Shown one piece after another: positions 2,003 through 53,956 of a stretch of 64,000 bases of DNA. Source of the DNA: Cylicocyclus nassatus (lineage: Eukaryota; Nematoda; Chromadorea; Rhabditida; Strongylidae); NCBI GenBank assembly GCA_958299035.1, contig CATQJL010000316.1, positions 30,817,441-30,881,440 on the forward strand, given 5' to 3'. The notes beneath the pieces are model-generated. The model was not told the origin of the DNA, searched no databases, and saw nothing but the letters and a program-made list of their open reading frames with translations. Every line of letters starts with the position of its first letter. The first letter of the stretch is position 1. The translations under genes and the position numbers were made by a program.

Positions 2003-3180
2003 TCTTATATATAAAGCTGAATGTCTGTTTGTATGTCTGTCTGTATGTATGTATGTATGTATGTACGTATGTTCCGAATAGAAAATTCATTTCTGAACCG
2101 ATCCGGACCAAACTTGGCACACATACACTACGGGCCCCGGCGGGTGTCATAGGCTACTTTTCGTCATCGATCGATATCGATTTTATCGATTTTTATCGAT
2201 TTTTTTGCTGAGTTCACCTACGGGGCTGGGAGTTGGCACAGGGGGGTAATCGAGCATGGGGATTCCGAATACAATATTGGTTTTCAGGATTATCGATTAC
2301 TTTTATCGATTTTATCGATTTTTTTGCAAAGTTTGAGCTACGGGGCTGGGAGTTGGCACAGGGGGGTAATCGAGCATGGGGATTCCGAATACAATATTGG
2401 TTTTCAGGATTATCGATTACTTTTATCGATTTTATCGATTTTTTTGCAAAGTTTGAGCTACGGGGCTGGGAGTTCGCACAGGGGGGTAATCGAGCATGGG
2501 GATTCCGAATACAATATTGGTTTTCGGGATTATCGATTACTTTTATCGATTTTATCGATTTTTGCAAAGTTTGAGCTAGGGGGCTGGGAGTTGGCACAGG
2601 GGGGTAATCGAGCATGCTGATCATCCCCAAGGGGGTGATCAGCATGCTCGATTACACCCCTGTGCCAAATTCCATCCCCCTAGCTCAAATTTTGCAAAAT
2701 CGATAAAATCGATAGAAGTAATGGATAATTCCAAAAACTAATATTGTATTCGTAATCTGCATGCTCGATTACCCCCCTGTGCAAACTCCCAGCCCCGCAG
2801 GTCAAACTTTACAAAAAAATCGATAAAATCGATAAAAGTAATGGACGATCCTGAAAACTAATATTGTGTTCGTAATCAGCATGCTCGATTACCCCCTGTG
2901 CAAAATCCCAGCCTCGCATGTCAAAATTTACAAAAAATCGATAAAATCAATAAAAGTAACCGATAATTCTGAAAACTAATATTGTATTCGGAATCCCCAT
3001 GCTCACTTCCCCCCTGTGCCAACTCCTAGCCCTGTAGGTGAACTCTGCGAAAAAATCGATAAAAATCGGTAAAATCGACATCGATCGATAACGAAAAGTG
3101 GACTGTGACACGCGCCGGGGCCCGAAGTGTATGTGTGCCAAGTTTGGTCCGGATACGGCGGAGCCGGGTAAGCCAGCTAG
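2003..3180 (+). mobile_element. Non-autonomous Helitron, copy 1
   Basis: The ends are canonical for Helitrons: 5' TC (TCTTATATATAAAGC) and 3' CTAG, preceded by a CGGCGGAGCCG hairpin (3156-3166) about ten bases before the end. The host bases are A on the left and T on the right, the usual AT insertion site, and there is no target-site duplication. Inside the ends, subterminal inverted repeats (GATCCGGACCAAACTTGGC near 2100 and its complement near 3140) enclose a long fold-back of 120-bp units centred near 2630. It has no Rep/helicase gene. It shares almost its full length with the copy at 6519-7700. Confidence 0.85.
2219..2635 (+). repeat. 120-bp tandem array in Helitron copy 1
   Basis: Units begin with CGGGGCTGGGAGTT at 2221, 2341 and 2461, exactly 120 bp apart, with a truncated fourth unit from about 2578. 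Each unit carries a GGCACAGGGGGGTAATCGAGC block and an ATCGAT-rich tail. The array ends at a perfect palindrome, GCTGATCATCCCC/GGGGTGATCAGC. After that the same unit recurs about four times in inverted orientation to about 3100, noticeably more diverged than the forward units. Confidence 0.9.
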
Positions 3181-44100: not shown

Positions 44101-45589
44101 TACATTTTGTTTTGCAAAATCTACCTGACGCTTTTTTATTAGATAAGGTCGCCCTAGTTAAAGCATATTGCGTATCATTGTCTTCCTTGTGTTTCAATGC
44201 TGCGCAGAGAGGTAATGTACTATTCTACAATTTTTGCTCTGTTTTCACAACAAACACATCTCGCAATTAAATGGTTAGCATAGAAGTACAGTTTGCGAAA
44301 GCACACCGGTGGTTGAATTGAAATACTTCCTGTGTTTCAAAAACTTAGTAAAGCCATCACAAATAGGTAAAACATGCAGGCCTTGAAAAACTCCAAATTA
44401 TAGTTACTTCGTCTCCTCCTATTTGCCTGAAACATGTGCAATTGCTTTTACGACTGATTGTGCAGTTATTGCTTGCTTTAACTGTCACTTTCAGCGGCCG
44501 GGTGATTGCATGGAGAGAATGGCTTACCTAGTCATTTCTCAGTACTTGTGGAGAACAACTAAAAGATTCTGTTAGAGAACTATGTGTGAGGATCAAAGCA
44601 TCTAAATGAACTAGCAATATGGAAACCGGTATCTCATTGTACGTATTGCTGGCAAAGTCCTAAATCAATGCTTGACATAGCTATCGCAATCTTGAAATGT
44701 AAACCCGATAAGATTGCTTGCGGCAAAAAGCTACAAACATTGCGGATAAACTCCAAAACTCCAAAACCAAAACGAACTACAAAAAGTTGCTTCAAATAAT
44801 AATTTCATTTCATATCAGCCTCTACGCTATCTGCTACTGTCACATCAGATGCTGTTGCTGGTTTAACTCATTCAAACCGATTGTAATTTTGTGCTTGAAC
44901 ACGAATTTAAAAGTACGGCTCACTAATGCATTTTAAAATTGCAGGCTCTCCGACGCAGGTGACGGCGCCAAAACTTTGGCGTAATAAAAGGTTATAACTC
45001 TTGCTATTATGTCGTCTGTTGTGAATCTATTCCTTATCAGAATTGACAAGAAAAACATGTGGTTAACTCAGAGTTTATTATTACAGAAACATGTGTGTAA
45101 TCAAATTCATTGTCCCAATCTACAGCGCTGATTCAAAAGAAAATACCGAAATGCATTTAAGTATTTCACTGAGTTCTGCGATAAAGTAACATAGCTTAAT
45201 CTTTCTTCATGCAGTCAACGTGAGCCAACATGAAATAACCTAACGAGATCTATTCAATCTACCTTACAATTAGAAGAAAGTGCTGAAGAAACAAGTGCAA
45301 CATTCAAGAAAATGACACATAGGCGGTGTTTACAACATAGACATCCATCTACGATTACGTTAAAAATCACATTGCAGTATCCATGGAGTGACAAGCATTA
45401 TAGTCATTTTATTGACGCAATACAAAGGAACGTTGATAAGAAATTATGTATCTTATCTTAGCAATAAACAATGGTAGGCTTTGGAAGAGTGACTAATGCT
45501 TCGTCTTCATAACGTTTGGTTAGAAAATTCCTTCCATGTTTTTCTAAAACGAAAAGCTATAAACTCAAGTGAGATATAAGCCTTGTAAA
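44101..45589. other. No feature seen
   Basis: AT-rich sequence. The frames at 44019-44270 and 44718-44936 have no splice support. Confidence 0.3.
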
Positions 45590-48493: not shown

Positions 48494-49203
48494 TTAGGTT
48501 GAACCGAAAGTTCGTTCGCACCATTTTCAAAAATTCATAACTTCGATTTTTCTGACCGATTTCACCGCTTTTATTTTTGTATAAAAGAGTAAGTCATTTT
48601 CCTTATAATGACATCGTAGCTGCTTGCTACTGATCATCCGTTACATAGATAAGAGCGGTAGAAGAAAATTAGTCAAAATTCGAATTTTCTGTGTGGGGTC
48701 ATAAAAAATCGGAGACTTGCAACAAAAATCGGAGCAGTTAGTATTACAGATATTTTCACCAGCTCTTTCTAACTATGCAAAGTTTGCGCTGATTGAGCGT
48801 CTCTATGAAAAGTTATGATTTCCCTGAAAAATGCCAAAACAAATCAAATTCGCCCTTTTGTATAGCTTGTCCGGAAATCGTAACTTTTCAAAGAGACGCT
48901 CAATCGGCGCAAACTTTGCACTGTTAAAAAGAGCTGGTGAAAGAACCTATAATACTGACTGCTCCGATTTTTGTTGCCAGCCTCCGATTTTTTATGACCC
49001 TACACAGAAAATTCGAATTCTGACTAATTTTCTTCTACCGCTCTTATCTGTGCAACAGATGATCATTAGTAAGCAGCTACGATGTCATTAAAAGGAGAAT
49101 GACTTACTCTTTCATAAAAAAGTAAAAGCAGTCAAATCGGTTGGAAAAAGCTGAAGTTATGAATTTTTGAAAATGGTGCGACAGAACTTTCGGGCCAACC
49201 TAA
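48494..49203. mobile_element. Mariner-like fold-back element, 710 bp
   Basis: The ends TTAGGTTGAACCGAAAGTTC and the mirrored GAACTTTCGGGCCAACCTAA are flanked by TA on both sides (48492-48493 and 49204-49205). The arms are complementary for more than 300 bp to a centre near 48845. There is no transposase. Its ends differ from those of the 21321 family, so it is a separate subfamily. Confidence 0.85.
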
Positions 49204-49205
49204 TA

Positions 49206-49425
49206 TACAGTCGAGTAGATTTAGCGGTAAATATAGTGTGCTTACACAAAAGGTGAAATGCGGTGAAATTGGCGCGTGAAGAAATAGTTTCGACTGTGAC
49301 GTCGGCCAATTGCGCGCGCAAGATACCCGCGGTACTGACGTGGCTACTTGTTCACGCGCAAATTTCACCGCATTTCACCTTCTGTGCAAGCACACTATAT
49401 TTACCGCTAAATCTACTCGACTGTA
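49206..49425. mobile_element. 220-bp MITE, TACAGTCGAG ends
   Basis: TACAGTCGAGTAGATTTAGC at the left is mirrored by GCTAAATCTACTCGACTGTA at the right, with about 100 bp of arm including GGTGAAATGCGGTGAAATT. The CAGTCGAG-type ends and flanking TA resemble Tc1/mariner-derived MITEs. It directly abuts the preceding element. Confidence 0.85.
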
Positions 49426-49774
49426 TGTGCTGCAATGGGTTAGGGGACTATCACCAGATCACGACAGCCTGATGGTCCCAACGCTTGCAGTAGAAGATAT
49501 AGCATTGTGTATTAGGTGACATATTATTTATTCTCTCATCAAGGTGATCGAATGAGCTCACTTTTGATGAATGGCATCTGGCAGAGCTGCCTAGCGAAAG
49601 ACAAAGCCAAAGCTTGTTGCCTCCTGACCAATTGTCATTTCATAAACTGTGGCTGCAAAACTTGGAAGTTGTCGATCAGACGCGGAAAGAAAGGATTGTT
49701 GATTCAAGTGTTCGAATACAGCTTACAACTATATAGATTTCAGGTTGACTGTTAGGTACAAATTTGTTAGGTAC
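49426..49774. other. Unique spacer before the Penelope-like element
   Basis: The frame at 49516-49755 has a Cys-rich stretch (CCLLTNCHFINCGC) but no splice signals and no partner. I do not call it a gene. Confidence 0.3.
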
Positions 49775-49777
49775 AAG

Positions 49778-50636
49778 ACCACGAGACGGCTGGCTTCCGT
49801 TCCTGAACATACAATTGATGGTGGCTAGCGGCTCGGTACGCATTAAATGGTACCGCAAAGAGAGTAATAAGAACATCATTTTGCACGCAAAATCCGCGCA
49901 TCCGATAGCCGTTATACGAGCTGTCATACACAACATGTTCGAAACGGCAAAGAATGTCTGTAGTGGCAAGACTGAAAGAGAAGAGTCATTGGAAATTGCG
50001 GCTAAAATAATGAGTTCAAATGGATATACGATGCATTTTAAACGCCCAAAAAGAGTCCCGACGAAGACAAGCGAGCAGAGTATTAACAGAATAGCTCTGT
50101 GCTTGCCTTTCATCTCCGAAAGGGTCACTGCCGAAATCAAGCAATGTCTAGCACAAGCACAGCTGCAAAAGGATGTTGTATTGGTAAATATTCTACGAGA
50201 TAATCTTAAGAAACAGCTAGTGCGCAACAGGCTGTACGACAGAACCTGTGCTACACGAGATTGCGTAGTGTGCCCTTACGGAAGACCCGGTGACTGCGCA
50301 AAAACTGGCGTCGTTTACCAAATAGAATGTACGAGCTGCTCTTCCGTTTATATCGGTGAAACCGGCCGGCCATTAAGCGTAAGGATAAATGAACACCTCG
50401 CTAGTAAGAAACGTCAGAGCATAATAAGCCCGCTAGGTAAACATAGGAAAGTAGAACATGGCGGTGATGATTTTGAAATCAAGTGCAAAATATTAGCCTT
50501 GGAAGATCAAATCTCTGCACGAAAGGCTTTAGAGGCGTCTTACATACTTGCCCGGAATCCGAAAATGAACGGCAAGAATGAAAAGCTTTCTATCACAAGT
50601 GATCTATTGCCGTATCTTGCATTATGCGAACTGTGA
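49778..50636 (+). pseudogene. PLE C-terminal fragment with GIY-YIG endonuclease
   Basis: This open frame repeats the last 285 or so codons of the complete copy's ORF, beginning at RPRDGWLPFLNIQ in the thumb/linker after the reverse transcriptase. It contains the Cys cluster CATRDCVVCPYGRPGDC, then the endonuclease core VVYQIECTSC…VYIGETGRPLSVRINEH, and ends LALCEL. It lacks the polymerase and has no start of its own (an ATG lies just upstream by chance), so on its own it is a dead fragment. Its amino-acid sequence is identical to the downstream copy. Confidence 0.85.
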
Positions 50637-50842
50637 GATAGCTGATCTATACTTAAGCAGCCTCTAACTGTTCCGACTGCTCATTTCGTCACTGCACTCC
50701 ATCGAGCAAGTTCTGAAGCAGATAACACTGCTGTCGGTGATACACTCGGTGGGTAGATTTCTACGCCCAGCCTCTCGATCTTCATCCTAGACGAATCGAG
50801 TACGCAGATGGGAGAAGGGCTTGGCAGCAAGCAGAGTGATAT

Positions 50843-50912
50843 CAACGTGACTGACACCTTTCCAGGCCTCTGAAGACGGTGTGTAACCGAAAAGTCAGGC
50901 AATTAAGTGTGT
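50843..50912 (+). ncRNA. Hammerhead-like motif, upstream pseudo-LTR (weaker)
   Basis: Core CTGAAGA (50870-50876), a short stem II (GGT 50878-50880 with ACC 50886-50888), GAAAA (50889-50893) and GTC (50894-50896), with stem I GCCT/AGGC on either side. Here stem III would be AA/GT with a mismatch, so this copy is less likely to cleave than the one downstream. Confidence 0.3.
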
Positions 50913-50962
50913 CATCGTTAGAAACCTGTACGGCACAGAAAATTAAGTGAAGTTGTACTAGA

Positions 50963-53635
50963 ATGCCCAGGTTACAAGAAAGGAGGACTTTTGACATAAT
51001 TTCTATTGTACCGCCAAACATGTCCTCATTAGCACGCGAAGCGTTAGCTCTTCGCCAAAAGGCCGTCGTCACTCGACAACAACTGTTTTTCCTCAAACGC
51101 TGCAAATCAATTGGATTAGTTCCACGTTTCATTGCAAATAAGAAGTTGGGATTGACATGCGGCTTACCGGAAGATCACTCAATGATACGCGGGCTTTATA
51201 TGAACATCCTCAAAGTAGTGATCAAGGAAAAACAACGCACCCTATACACGAGCTTGCTGAAATGTAAAACTAAAGAAGAACATTGTCGTCGTTATCTGTG
51301 CGATACAATTTGGCTGAGGATCGAAAGTGCGTCAAAGCAGATATGCGACTCTTTGCGCTCCAAAATCAAATCCCGACTTTGCGAAAAATTCGAAAAACTC
51401 TCGGGCGAAGGTAAGCAGTCTTTTGGGAGTAGATAGAAATCCGCCAGTTATTCACACTCACAATACAACTGCTCGATCTGAAAACAAAAGAACGGCAAGG
51501 GTTACTGTGCTAGGTCAAGCTCAGATCTCTCCGAATGCTATTGAATTTCTTAGTTTAGGACCCTCTTTCGCACCAACCCAGAATATAACAGCCAGAACAT
51601 ATCGCAGCGTATTGGGTTCACTGCAACGATTTAGAGACCAGCTACGGGTTAAATTGAGGCATGACGAACAAATGCAAACATCTGATGCTCTTAGTAGAAG
51701 GACCTTACCATCAATCCCATTTCCGTCTTCATTCTACAAAGAGCCTGAACCTTATGCTGTTGCAGACACCAAGTTCCGTATACTTTCGTTGGGTATATTG
51801 AAAATTCTCAATAACAACAAAGGCATTAGAAGATCTAACTTGACATGCGCGCAGGAGCAGGGTTTTAGAGAGATAAGGGAGCTGACTAGTAATGGAACTA
51901 TTCGCCTTTCGGTCAGCGATAAAGGTGGAGAATTTGTAGTCATGCCACAGGATCTTGACCGCGCAATAACTGAAGAACATTTGTCAGATCGAACTATCTA
52001 TCAACCAACAAGTGAGAAGGAATTCCTTGCACAAAGCAAGAGGTTGAATCATGTATGGACGTTGATAGGTAGAGAAGCAGGTCTTAACGAGAAGTTTCTT
52101 AGTAGGATAAAACTGGAAACACCAACGTGCCCTGTCTTCTATGGACTAGTTAAAACGCATAAACTCTCTTTGCGCGATATGCAGTCTATGTCCGCTAAGT
52201 CGTATAAAGTACGGCCCATCATCAGCTGTACCAAAGGGCCAACGGATCGAATATCATGGTTCCTTAATAAAATTGTCACTCAACTCTTAAATAAGGTGCC
52301 GGCCCATTTGAGCAGCACAGTCATTTCCTTGAGCTGTTACGGCAGACGAACTTCGACCAGAACTGCGCGTACGAGTCGTTTGATGTCACCTCTTTGTATA
52401 CTAATGTATCCACTGAGAGCGCCTTGCAGGCACTTTTTGAGATGCTGGACTCACATGCCAAAACCATGCTGATGTACGGTCTCAGCAAGACGCGCATCAT
52501 GACGCTCATCAAGGAATGCTTGAGTTGCAATATCTTCAAATGGTCTGGGAAATATTTTGCGCAAGTTAGAGGGCTGGCAATGGGTCAAAGGCTAGCACCC
52601 GTATTGGCAGTCTGCTTCATGAGCAAAATAGAACAACCTGTGCTAGCCAGGAGCCCGCTTATGTACTGCAGGTACATTGATGGTTGTTGTATCGTTACTG
52701 CAACTCAGTCCGAAATGGACGAGTGCTTCAGAGTACTCAATCAACAATCGCAGTACATAAGCTTAACAAGAGAAAGACCACGAGACGGCTGGCTTCCGTT
52801 CCTGAACATACAATTGATGGTGGCTAGCGGCTCGGTACGCATTAAATGGTACCGCAAAGAGAGTAATAAGAACATCATTTTGCACGCAAAATCCGCGCAT
52901 CCGATAGCCGTTATACGAGCTGTCATACACAACATGTTCGAAACGGCAAAGAATGTCTGTAGTGGCAAGACTGAAAGAGAAGAGTCATTGGAAATTGCGG
53001 CTAAAATAATGAGTTCAAATGGATATACGATGCATTTTAAACGCCCAAAAAGAGTCCCGACGAAGACAAGCGAGCAGAGTATTAACAGAATAGCTCTGTG
53101 CTTGCCTTTCATCTCCGAAAGGGTCACTGCCGAAATCAAGCAATGTCTAGCACAAGCACAGCTGCAAAAGGATGTTGTATTGGTAAATATTCTACGAGAT
53201 AATCTTAAGAAACAGCTAGTGCGCAACAGGCTGTACGACAGAACCTGTGCTACACGAGATTGCGTAGTGTGCCCTTACGGAAGACCCGGTGACTGCGCAA
53301 AAACTGGCGTCGTTTACCAAATAGAATGTACGAGCTGCTCTTCCGTTTATATCGGTGAAACCGGCCGGCCATTAAGCGTAAGGATAAATGAACACCTCGC
53401 TAGTAAGAAACGTCAGAGCATAATAAGCCCGCTAGGTAAACATAGGAAAGTAGAACATGGCGGTGATGATTTTGAAATCAAGTGCAAAATATTAGCCTTG
53501 GAAGATCAAATCTCTGCACGAAAGGCTTTAGAGGCGTCTTACATACTTGCCCGGAATCCGAAAATGAACGGCAAGAATGAAAAGCTTTCTATCACAAGTG
53601 ATCTATTGCCGTATCTTGCATTATGCGAACTGTGA
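50963..53635 (+). pseudogene. PLE reverse transcriptase / GIY-YIG ORF, frameshifted
   Basis: The reading frame changes twice: 50963 to about 51412 (N-terminal region), about 51413 to 52321, and about 52322 to 53635. Motifs in order are VTVLGQAQISPNAIEFLSLG (PLE-specific N-terminal motif), FYGLVKTHK, KVRPIISCTKGPT, FDVTSLYTNV (motif A with the first Asp), GLAMGQRLAPVLA (motif B), YCRYIDGCCIV (motif C), the Cys cluster and the VYQI/VYIG endonuclease. Motif C reads YIDG, where the catalytic centre normally has YxDD. Total length of about 890 codons fits the family. With two frameshifts and a lost catalytic Asp this copy is almost certainly inactive. An intron at 51410 (GAAG|GTAAGC) was considered, but no suitable acceptor follows. 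Confidence 0.85.
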
Positions 53636-53956
53636 GATAGCTGATCTATACTTAAGCAGCCTCTAACTGTTCCGACTGCTCATTTCGTCACTGCACTCCA
53701 TCGAGCAAGTTCTGAAGCAGATAACACTGCTGTCGGTGATACACTCGGTGGGTAGATTTCTACGCCCAGCCTCTCGATCTTCATCCTAGACGAATCGAGT
53801 ACGCAGATGGAGGAGGGCTTGGCAGCAAGTAGAGTGATATCAACGTGACTGACGCCTTTCCAGGCCTCTGAAGACGGTGTGTCAGGAACCGAAACGTCAG
53901 GCAATAAAGTGTGTCATCATTAGAAACCTGTACGGCACAGAAAATTAAGTGAAGTT
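52774..53956 (+). repeat. Downstream pseudo-LTR
   Basis: Direct repeat of 49775-50954. It contains the 3' third of the ORF, the stop at 53633-53635 and about 320 bases of 3' untranslated sequence with the hammerhead-like motif. Confidence 0.9.
53853..53912 (+). ncRNA. Candidate minimal hammerhead ribozyme
   Basis: Core elements occur in order: CTGAAGA (53868-53874), stem II GGT/ACC (53876-53878 with 53888-53890), GAAAC (53891-53895) and GTC (53896-53898). Stem I pairs GCCT (53864-53867) with AGGC (53899-53902) and, across an internal loop, CTTT (53856-53859) with AAAG (53906-53909). Stem III is only ACGT with no loop. Vestigial, self-complementary stem III of this kind is known from PLE hammerheads that cleave as dimers. 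Against it, C53875 is left unpaired at the base of stem II. Predicted cleavage is after C53898. Confidence 0.45.

What the first reader, a model, noticed from the sequence alone, without database searches (positions are those of the whole stretch)
53853..53912. Hammerhead-like motifs in both Penelope pseudo-LTRs, spaced one element apart
Seen: CTGAAGA, GAAAC and GTC in hammerhead order at 53868-53898, with GCCT/AGGC as stem I, a CTTT/AAAG extension across an internal loop, and a self-complementary ACGT in place of stem III. The other pseudo-LTR has the same arrangement at 50870-50896 with a spoiled stem III. Known: Penelope-like elements carry minimal hammerheads in their pseudo-LTRs, some with almost no stem III that act as dimers. 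Inference: cleavage at both sites (after 50896 and after 53898) would release one RNA of about 3002 nt starting just before the ORF, exactly one unit. The unpaired C53875 beside stem II is the main weakness.
Basis: partly seen in the sequence, partly recalled or inferred. Interest (0 to 1): 0.75.

Follow-up and report, generated by a model that had tools for sequence, protein, structure and literature searches.

The report
Retrotransposon hammerhead with extra core base
A jumping element in this worm-like genome carries an RNA motif of the self-cutting hammerhead kind, kept in dozens of related copies but always with one extra letter inside the normally fixed core, so it is an unusual version of a known ribozyme whose actual cutting still has to be tested.

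Summary
The two motifs (cut sites after 50896 and 53898, 3002 nt apart) lie in the pseudo-LTRs of a broken Penelope-like element (RT + GIY-YIG) in a 515-Mb, probably nematode, genome. I examined 70 of 85 other PLE loci found by protein (57-68% identity to the query; about 20 sequence groups): all 70 have the motif at the same place after the ORF, 58 with a strict core and 12 altered or cut off. Stems I and II show compensatory changes, core position N7 varies (A/C), H17 is never G (68 readable), and GAAACGT is fixed (70 of 70). So this is a minimal type I PLE hammerhead. Unusual: one extra nucleotide between A9 and stem II in 70 of 70 loci and in the window's family. The CTTT/AAAG extension is not conserved. 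Cleavage is untested. Insertion 3' ends cluster 55-69 and 95-119 nt beyond the cut (85 of 102), so copied templates crossed this site uncut or re-joined. That weakens the release-one-unit model. Verdict: new variant of a known kind.

The parts
53864..53902 (+). Hammerhead motif of the 3' pseudo-LTR: stem I 53864-53867/53899-53902, core CTGAAGA 53868-53874, extra C 53875, stem II 53876-53878/53888-53890, GAAA 53891-53894, CG 53895-53896, U 53897, predicted cut after C53898
   Evidence: read directly; descriptor; covariance model 49 bits (the window copies are among the sequences the model was built from); compensatory changes in relatives
50866..50900 (+). Same motif in the upstream pseudo-LTR, predicted cut after C50896; palindrome ACGT changed to AAGT
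53875..53875 (+). Extra nucleotide between core A9 and stem II; C here, mostly A in relatives
53883..53886 (+). CAGG insertion in loop II, in this copy alone (1 of 30)
53857..53863 (+). TTTCCAG ending right before stem I, resembling a nematode 3' splice (trans-splice) acceptor; TTNYAG at or one base from this place in 40 of 43 aligned motifs
   Evidence: the resemblance is recalled, not tested
53903..53908 (+). AATAAA hexamer (poly(A)-signal-like) directly after stem I
   Evidence: 34 of 43 within 18 nt of the cut
50923..50973 (+). Start-codon hairpin: AACCTG 50923-50928 / CAGGTT 50968-50973 with ATG 50963-50965 in the loop, downstream of the hammerhead
49775..50954 (+). 5'-truncated first unit of the element, up to the end of its pseudo-LTR repeat
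50963..53635 (+). RT + GIY-YIG coding region of the second unit, split into three overlapping frames (50963-51436, 51327-52472, 52394-53635)
53956..53956 (+). 3' end of the element, +58 from the predicted cut
44926..44995 (+). Degraded hammerhead relic of another pseudo-LTR
   Evidence: covariance model 25.3 bits, E 1.3e-4; sequence

Best explanation
It is a minimal type I hammerhead of a Penelope-like element, of a clade variant with one extra base between core A9 and stem II and with stem III reduced to an A-U pair plus CG, i.e. a palindromic ACGU that can pair with the ACGU of a second motif. Shown by sequence: the fold (compensatory changes), the fixed core, the fixed extra base, its place directly before the ORF and before a start-codon hairpin whose loop covers the first of two insertion 3' ends. 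Inferred: transcripts of tandem units cleave slowly and conditionally (paired with a second motif and/or helped by the element's protein) after H17, giving an RNA with its 5' end about 66 nt before the AUG. Cleavage trims some transcripts, but the molecules that are reverse transcribed are those left uncut or re-joined, because reverse transcription starts downstream of the cut site.
For: Two hits against 0.01 expected per strand. Other PLE loci of the genome: strict motif at the same place after the RT-EN ORF in 24 of 30 and 34 of 40. Reading all 70 by position, without demanding H17 or the 5' core: A6, G8, A9, G12, A13, A14, A15.1, C, G, U16.1 and the inner two pairs of stem II 70 of 70; N7 A52/C18; H17 U42 C23 A3 and no G (2 cut off); exactly one base between A9 and stem II in 70 of 70 (A65 C4 G1). 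Pair counts on 43 distinct sequences: inner stem I 98.8% of cells paired, pair 20-58 GC29/AU11/CG3, pair 22-56 UA33/UG7/CG3, stem II pair 33-45 CG39/UA3/AU1; 25 both-side cells against 5.7 in shuffles and at most 5 when slid. RNAalifold finds the same stems unprompted. Copies of the window's own family with open frames of 888 and 891 aa carry the family motif. Weak palindromic stem III working better as dimer: axolotl (PMC7229834 passages). PLE hammerhead cleavage with protein, and an earlier observation of self-cleavage at 3-25 mM Mg2+ cited there (PMC11167929).
Against: No cleavage was tested. A C at the matching place of the CChMVd hammerhead is strongly detrimental (PMC3705267 passage), and the window family has C. 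8 of 70 loci have lost U4 (L061, L067, L068, L085, L091, L096, L107, L110) and one C3 (L105); L061 and L067 lie with open frames of 938 and 910 aa. In the own family C3 is changed in 3 of 30 copies. So activity may be dispensable. Lone-molecule folding prefers to pair the extra C with G12 (-11.2 against -8.7 kcal/mol for the same fold without it). Two measures do not stand out from shuffles: number of pairs with both-side change (4; reached by 57 of 500) and of extra pair types (9; 137 of 500). Rfam models do not recognise it (best on a relative 22.5 bits against a cut-off of 48.5).
Confidence: 0.72

Rival explanations
1. The motif keeps the hammerhead fold but is no longer, or hardly, a self-cleaving ribozyme: the extra core base has turned it into a structured binding or packaging site for the element's RT protein or a splice/poly(A) regulator.
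For: Extra base in the core of 70 of 70 loci, natural loss of U4 in 8 and C3 in 1 of 70, start-codon hairpin right beside it, insertion templates uncut or re-joined.
Against: The unpaired core letters, N7 freedom and the H17-not-G rule are kept, which a mere binding hairpin would not need; an extra A at the same place only moderately slows a viroid ribozyme (PMC3705267 passage).
Confidence: 0.22
2. Chance resemblance within an ordinary pseudo-LTR.
For: Only two copies in the window, both from one element; no Rfam match.
Against: 0.01 expected per strand; conserved with compensatory changes in about 20 sequence groups of relatives.
Confidence: 0.01
3. A fully working hammerhead whose double cleavage releases monomers that are ligated into circles, and the circles are the rolling template that gives tandem copies with fixed 3' ends.
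For: Motifs exactly one unit apart; 3' ends at +55-69 or +95-119 in 85 of 102 copies while 5' ends vary; retrozyme precedent (PMC7761336 and PMC7229834 passages).
Against: Linear read-through of tandem arrays explains the same anatomy without cleavage; the PAc hammerhead was dispensable for insertion in vitro and RNA-seq showed no ends at its cut (PMC11167929).
Confidence: 0.15

Closest known systems
Minimal type I hammerheads of Penelope-like elements (Cervera and de la Pena 2014; Lunse, Weinberg and Breaker 2017)
   Same: In the pseudo-LTR of PLEs, in tandem, reduced stem III, proposed to cleave as dimers (reviews PMC7761336 and PMC6155905, passages)
   Different: Here one extra base follows A9 in every locus examined. 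Of the two primary papers I saw only reference-list entries; they are not held, so whether they show such an insert is unknown to me.
PAc, Poseidon of Anolis carolinensis (PMC11167929)
   Same: Hammerhead at the pLTR-ORF junction, RT start inside an AC-rich stem-loop downstream of it, optional tail between two RT start sites (section read)
   Different: There the ORF begins at stem II and the cut is 26 bp inside it; here the ATG is 64-77 nt after the cut. The PAc core sequence is in a figure and was not seen.
CChMVd plus-strand hammerhead with extra A10 between A9 and G10.1 (PMC3705267 passage)
   Same: One extra nucleotide at the same place of the core
   Different: Viroid, an A; changing that A to C was strongly harmful, whereas the window family has C
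Axolotl HHR_Amex1 (PMC7229834 passages)
   Same: Weak stem III closed by a palindrome; dimeric constructs cleave better
   Different: Non-autonomous retrozyme repeat of 330 bp, with loop 1-loop 2 contacts

Membership tests
Hammerhead ribozyme, type I | CUGANGA core strand between stems I and II | tested here: met
   Window copies; strict in 58 of 70 other PLE loci, 12 changed or cut off; N7 A52/C18
Hammerhead ribozyme, type I | GAAA strand with A15.1-U16.1 and H17 not G | tested here: met
   70 of 70 GAAA and U16.1; H17 U42 C23 A3, no G, 2 cut off (read without demanding H17)
Hammerhead ribozyme, type I | Stems I and II supported by compensatory change, stem I open-ended | tested here: met
   two of five summary measures are not beyond the shuffles
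Hammerhead ribozyme, type I | No nucleotide between A9 and base pair 10.1-11.1 (consensus core) | tested here: not met
   One extra base in 70 of 70 loci and 30 of 30 own-family copies; exception known in CChMVd
Hammerhead ribozyme, type I | Stem III of two or more pairs in one molecule | tested here: not met
   A-U plus CG with no loop; ACGT in 42 of 43 aligned motifs; four of 70 loci (L061, L067, L068, L107) have a longer ACGTCGACGT; reduced stem III is usual for PLE hammerheads
Hammerhead ribozyme, type I | Cleavage after H17 | not testable with these tools
   needs RNA
Hammerhead ribozyme (Rfam models) | Score above the gathering threshold | tested here: not met
Penelope-like element | RT joined to GIY-YIG endonuclease | tested here: met
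   RVT_1 and GIY-YIG in 52394-53635
Penelope-like element | Tandem or partial-tandem units with pseudo-LTRs | tested here: met
   Period 2998-3002 in the window; arrays L040-L042
Penelope-like element | Optional tail: two discrete 3' ends | tested here: met
   45 of 102 at +55-69 and 40 of 102 at +95-119

The most novel reading that the evidence does not exclude
A whole PLE radiation has fixed an extra nucleotide in the hammerhead core, making a ribozyme gated by dimer pairing or by the element's protein, packed within about 60 nt between a trans-splice-acceptor-like TTNCAG and an AATAAA signal and followed by the start-codon hairpin where reverse transcription starts: an RNA-fate switch in which a transcript is capped and translated, self-cut, or kept whole as template.
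Probability: 0.25. Interest if true: 0.72.

Novelty: new variant of a known kind. Interest (0 to 1): 0.5.

Why it matters
The role of hammerheads in Penelope-like elements is described as unknown (PMC7761336 passage). A clade in which the core is altered in one fixed way, with natural variants that include U4 and C3 losses beside open frames, gives a natural experiment: comparing cleavage of A-, C- and U4C-type motifs with and without the element's protein would show whether activity is selected at all. The gap between cut site and insertion ends also separates the template from the cleaved product, which bears on why PLEs are tandem.

Tried and rejected
Rfam over the whole window at gathering thresholds, over both pseudo-LTRs and over six relatives at E <= 10: no hammerhead above cut-off; one weak type III match on L074. 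Outer stem I extension CTTT/AAAG: not conserved. Pairing of the extra base with G12: possible in 6 of 43. Cleavage footprint in genomic ends: of the 41 rows none starts exactly at the cut and one starts 9-10 nt before it, but only the 40 best of 472 candidates were scored, and a copy that begins at the cut would match few bases and rank low, so this is no fair test. L048 and L064 (one array, one event) stop at GAAACGT, within a base or two of the cut; that alone is not evidence of cleavage. Viral-contig protein search: nothing. Pattern scans of viral contigs with and without the extra base (4 and at least 120 stretches) and of prokaryote contigs (at least 120): the patterns differ in permissiveness and the numbers are near my rough chance estimate, which no tool computed, so no conclusion. 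A whole-genome count of motifs with 0, 1 or 2 extra bases was wanted but did not complete. Dropped before counts: 4 of 60 distinct rows judged chance hits (L016:2327, L044:568, L067:2087, L068:2359). A1 holds 43 rows chosen by me from the 56 remaining distinct sequences, own-family rows thinned to three. Its rows were found by descriptors that demand H17 not G, so the unbiased H17 count is that. In A2 (31 rows chosen from those listed) the two own-family rows are misaligned at the left arm, which lowers the percentage; there too the number of pairs with both-side change (106 of 500) and of extra types (500 of 500) is not beyond shuffles. rests on the 30 fetched of 41 own-family rows; 15 of the 85 rows were not examined.

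Full report
What is there. The window lies in a 514.7-Mb assembly, G000, contig C316. The element at 49775-53956 encodes RT and GIY-YIG domains. Its best protein relatives are from Ancylostoma, Haemonchus and Necator, so the host is probably a strongylid-like nematode (inference). It is a 5'-truncated unit followed by one full unit with period 2998-3002, and its coding region is split into three frames.

The motif. Both pseudo-LTRs contain stem I GCCT/AGGC, CTGAAGA, an extra C, stem II GGT/ACC, GAAA, CG (AG in the upstream copy), U, C. A descriptor search finds only these two in the window, against 0.01 expected per strand, and none if the extra base is forbidden. Rfam does not call it.

Own family. 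A DNA search of the genome gave 41 matches, with 40 of 472 candidates scored. In the 30 fetched and aligned copies U4, G8, G12, A13, A14, U16.1 and C17 are fixed; C3 is C in 27, G5 is G in 29, A6 and A9 are A in 29, A15.1 is A in 28; the extra C and the GGT/ACC of stem II are fixed; the CAGG at 53883-53886 occurs in the window copy alone. Copies with open frames of 888 and 891 aa exist and carry the family motif; one unit in the L041 array has C3U upstream of its frame.

Other relatives. A protein search with P0052 gave 85 matches, with 85 of 10,844 candidates scored. I examined 70 of the 85: 30 with long flanks and 40 as stretches of 326-344 nt. The 70 fall into 20 single-linkage groups at 85% identity of the pseudo-LTR piece (24 at 90%, 11 at 80%). 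The strict motif is present in 24 of 30 and 34 of 40. The other 12 show a changed or cut-off version at the same place: U4C in L061, L067, L068, L085, L091, L096, L107; U4C with G5A in L110; C3U in L105; a deletion over C3-U4 in L060; and a stop right after GAAACGT in L048 and L064. Exactly one base stands between A9 and stem II in 70 of 70: A65, C4, G1. Over the 56 distinct sequences, own family included, it is A36, C18, T1, G1.

Structure. On 43 distinct sequences inner stem I is paired in 98.8% of cells, with three pair types at one position (GC29, AU11, CG3); stem II has three types at its third pair (CG39, UA3, AU1). Both-side changes number 25 cells, against 5.7 in shuffles and at most 5 in slid versions; two other measures (pairs with both-side change, extra pair types) are within the shuffles. 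RNAalifold on its own proposes the same two stems and leaves the extra base unpaired. The extra base could pair with G12 in 6 of 43, and the outer extension is paired in 37.8%. Read without demanding H17, N7 is A52/C18 and H17 is U42, C23, A3 with no G among 68. These freedoms are what the hammerhead mechanism predicts (recalled rule). Stem III is ACGT in 42 of 43: too short to close alone, but self-complementary, so two motifs could form a four-pair stem III. A weak palindromic stem III that works better as a dimer is described for axolotl (PMC7229834, passages).

The extra base. A single extra A between A9 and G10.1 is known in the chrysanthemum chlorotic mottle viroid plus hammerhead; it slows trans-cleavage moderately, C or G there is strongly harmful, and U is favourable (PMC3705267, passage). 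Of other natural core insertions, ones after A6 or near C3 lower activity and one within GAAA is thought to be accommodated (PMC3088659, passages). None of the listings and passages that I saw mentions a fixed insert in PLE hammerheads (searches), but the two primary papers on PLE hammerheads are not held, so they could already show it.

Neighbourhood. TTNYAG ends at the outermost stem I base in 37 of 43 and one base before it in the 3 own-family rows; it resembles a nematode splice or trans-splice acceptor (recalled). AATAAA follows within 18 nt of the cut in 34 of 43. Further down, an 8-pair stem (AATCTCGG/CCGAGATT type; shorter in the own family) encloses a loop of 36-44 nt, 60% A+C, with the ATG at its 3' side; 93.4% of cells are paired and one pair is UA15/CG14. 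The right arm is coding, so part of its conservation is protein-level, and some measures are within shuffles.

Insertion ends. In the own family most 3' ends lie at +55-64 or +100-110; L039 ends at +80, L004 breaks at +414 and a copy in L029 at +15. Over 102 copies in which the end could be placed, 45 fall at +55-69, 40 at +95-119 and 17 elsewhere; low values can reflect lack of a close relative, and 17 further copies ran to the end of the fetched stretch. By position the first class falls in the loop of the start-codon hairpin. This resembles PAc of Anolis, where reverse transcription starts internally in an AC-rich stem-loop and the optional tail lies between two start sites (PMC11167929, main-text section read). 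In PAc the hammerhead cleaved only with protein present and its mutants did not affect insertion; the same paper's methods cite an earlier observation of PLE hammerhead self-cleavage at 3-25 mM Mg2+ (passage).

Reading. The motif is a hammerhead by fold and core, of a variant form. That it cleaves is likely for groups with A inserted and less sure for the window family with C. Because insertion ends lie past the cut, the copied RNA was uncut, re-joined or circular at that site. A simple model in which cut monomers are the linear template is therefore disfavoured; 5'-end trimming, conditional cleavage or circles remain open.

Limits. One genome; relatives of one PLE clade; alignment rows chosen by me; no RNA data; host identity inferred from proteins; whole-genome counts of 0, 1 and 2 extra bases did not complete.

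Noticed in passing
window 50923-50973 and relatives: Conserved start-codon hairpin with a loop of 60% A+C just after the hammerhead; by position the first class of insertion 3' ends falls in its loop.
   Followed up: partly
window 53857-53863 and A1 columns 13-19: TTNYAG at the 5' edge of stem I in 40 of 43 aligned motifs, like a nematode 3' splice or SL trans-splice acceptor, with AATAAA on the other side of the motif.
   Followed up: partly
L061, L067, L068, L107: U4C core but a longer stem III (ACGTCGACGT, three pairs and a UCGA loop possible); L061 and L067 have open frames over 900 aa.
   Followed up: partly
L048:1244-1307 and L064:1200-1263: Element sequence stops right after GAAACGT, at the predicted cut, in two units of one array.
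   Followed up: partly
window 44926-44995: Degraded pseudo-LTR hammerhead relic; six PLE proteins find no coding region near it.
   Followed up: partly
window 48504-49426: Long inverted repeats (277 nt 90%, 111 nt 84%, 48 nt 90%) just left of the element, perhaps a fold-back transposon.
   Followed up: no
L007, L010, L018, L026, L034: Own-family copies in inverted pairs, a layout often seen in PLEs (recalled).
   Followed up: no
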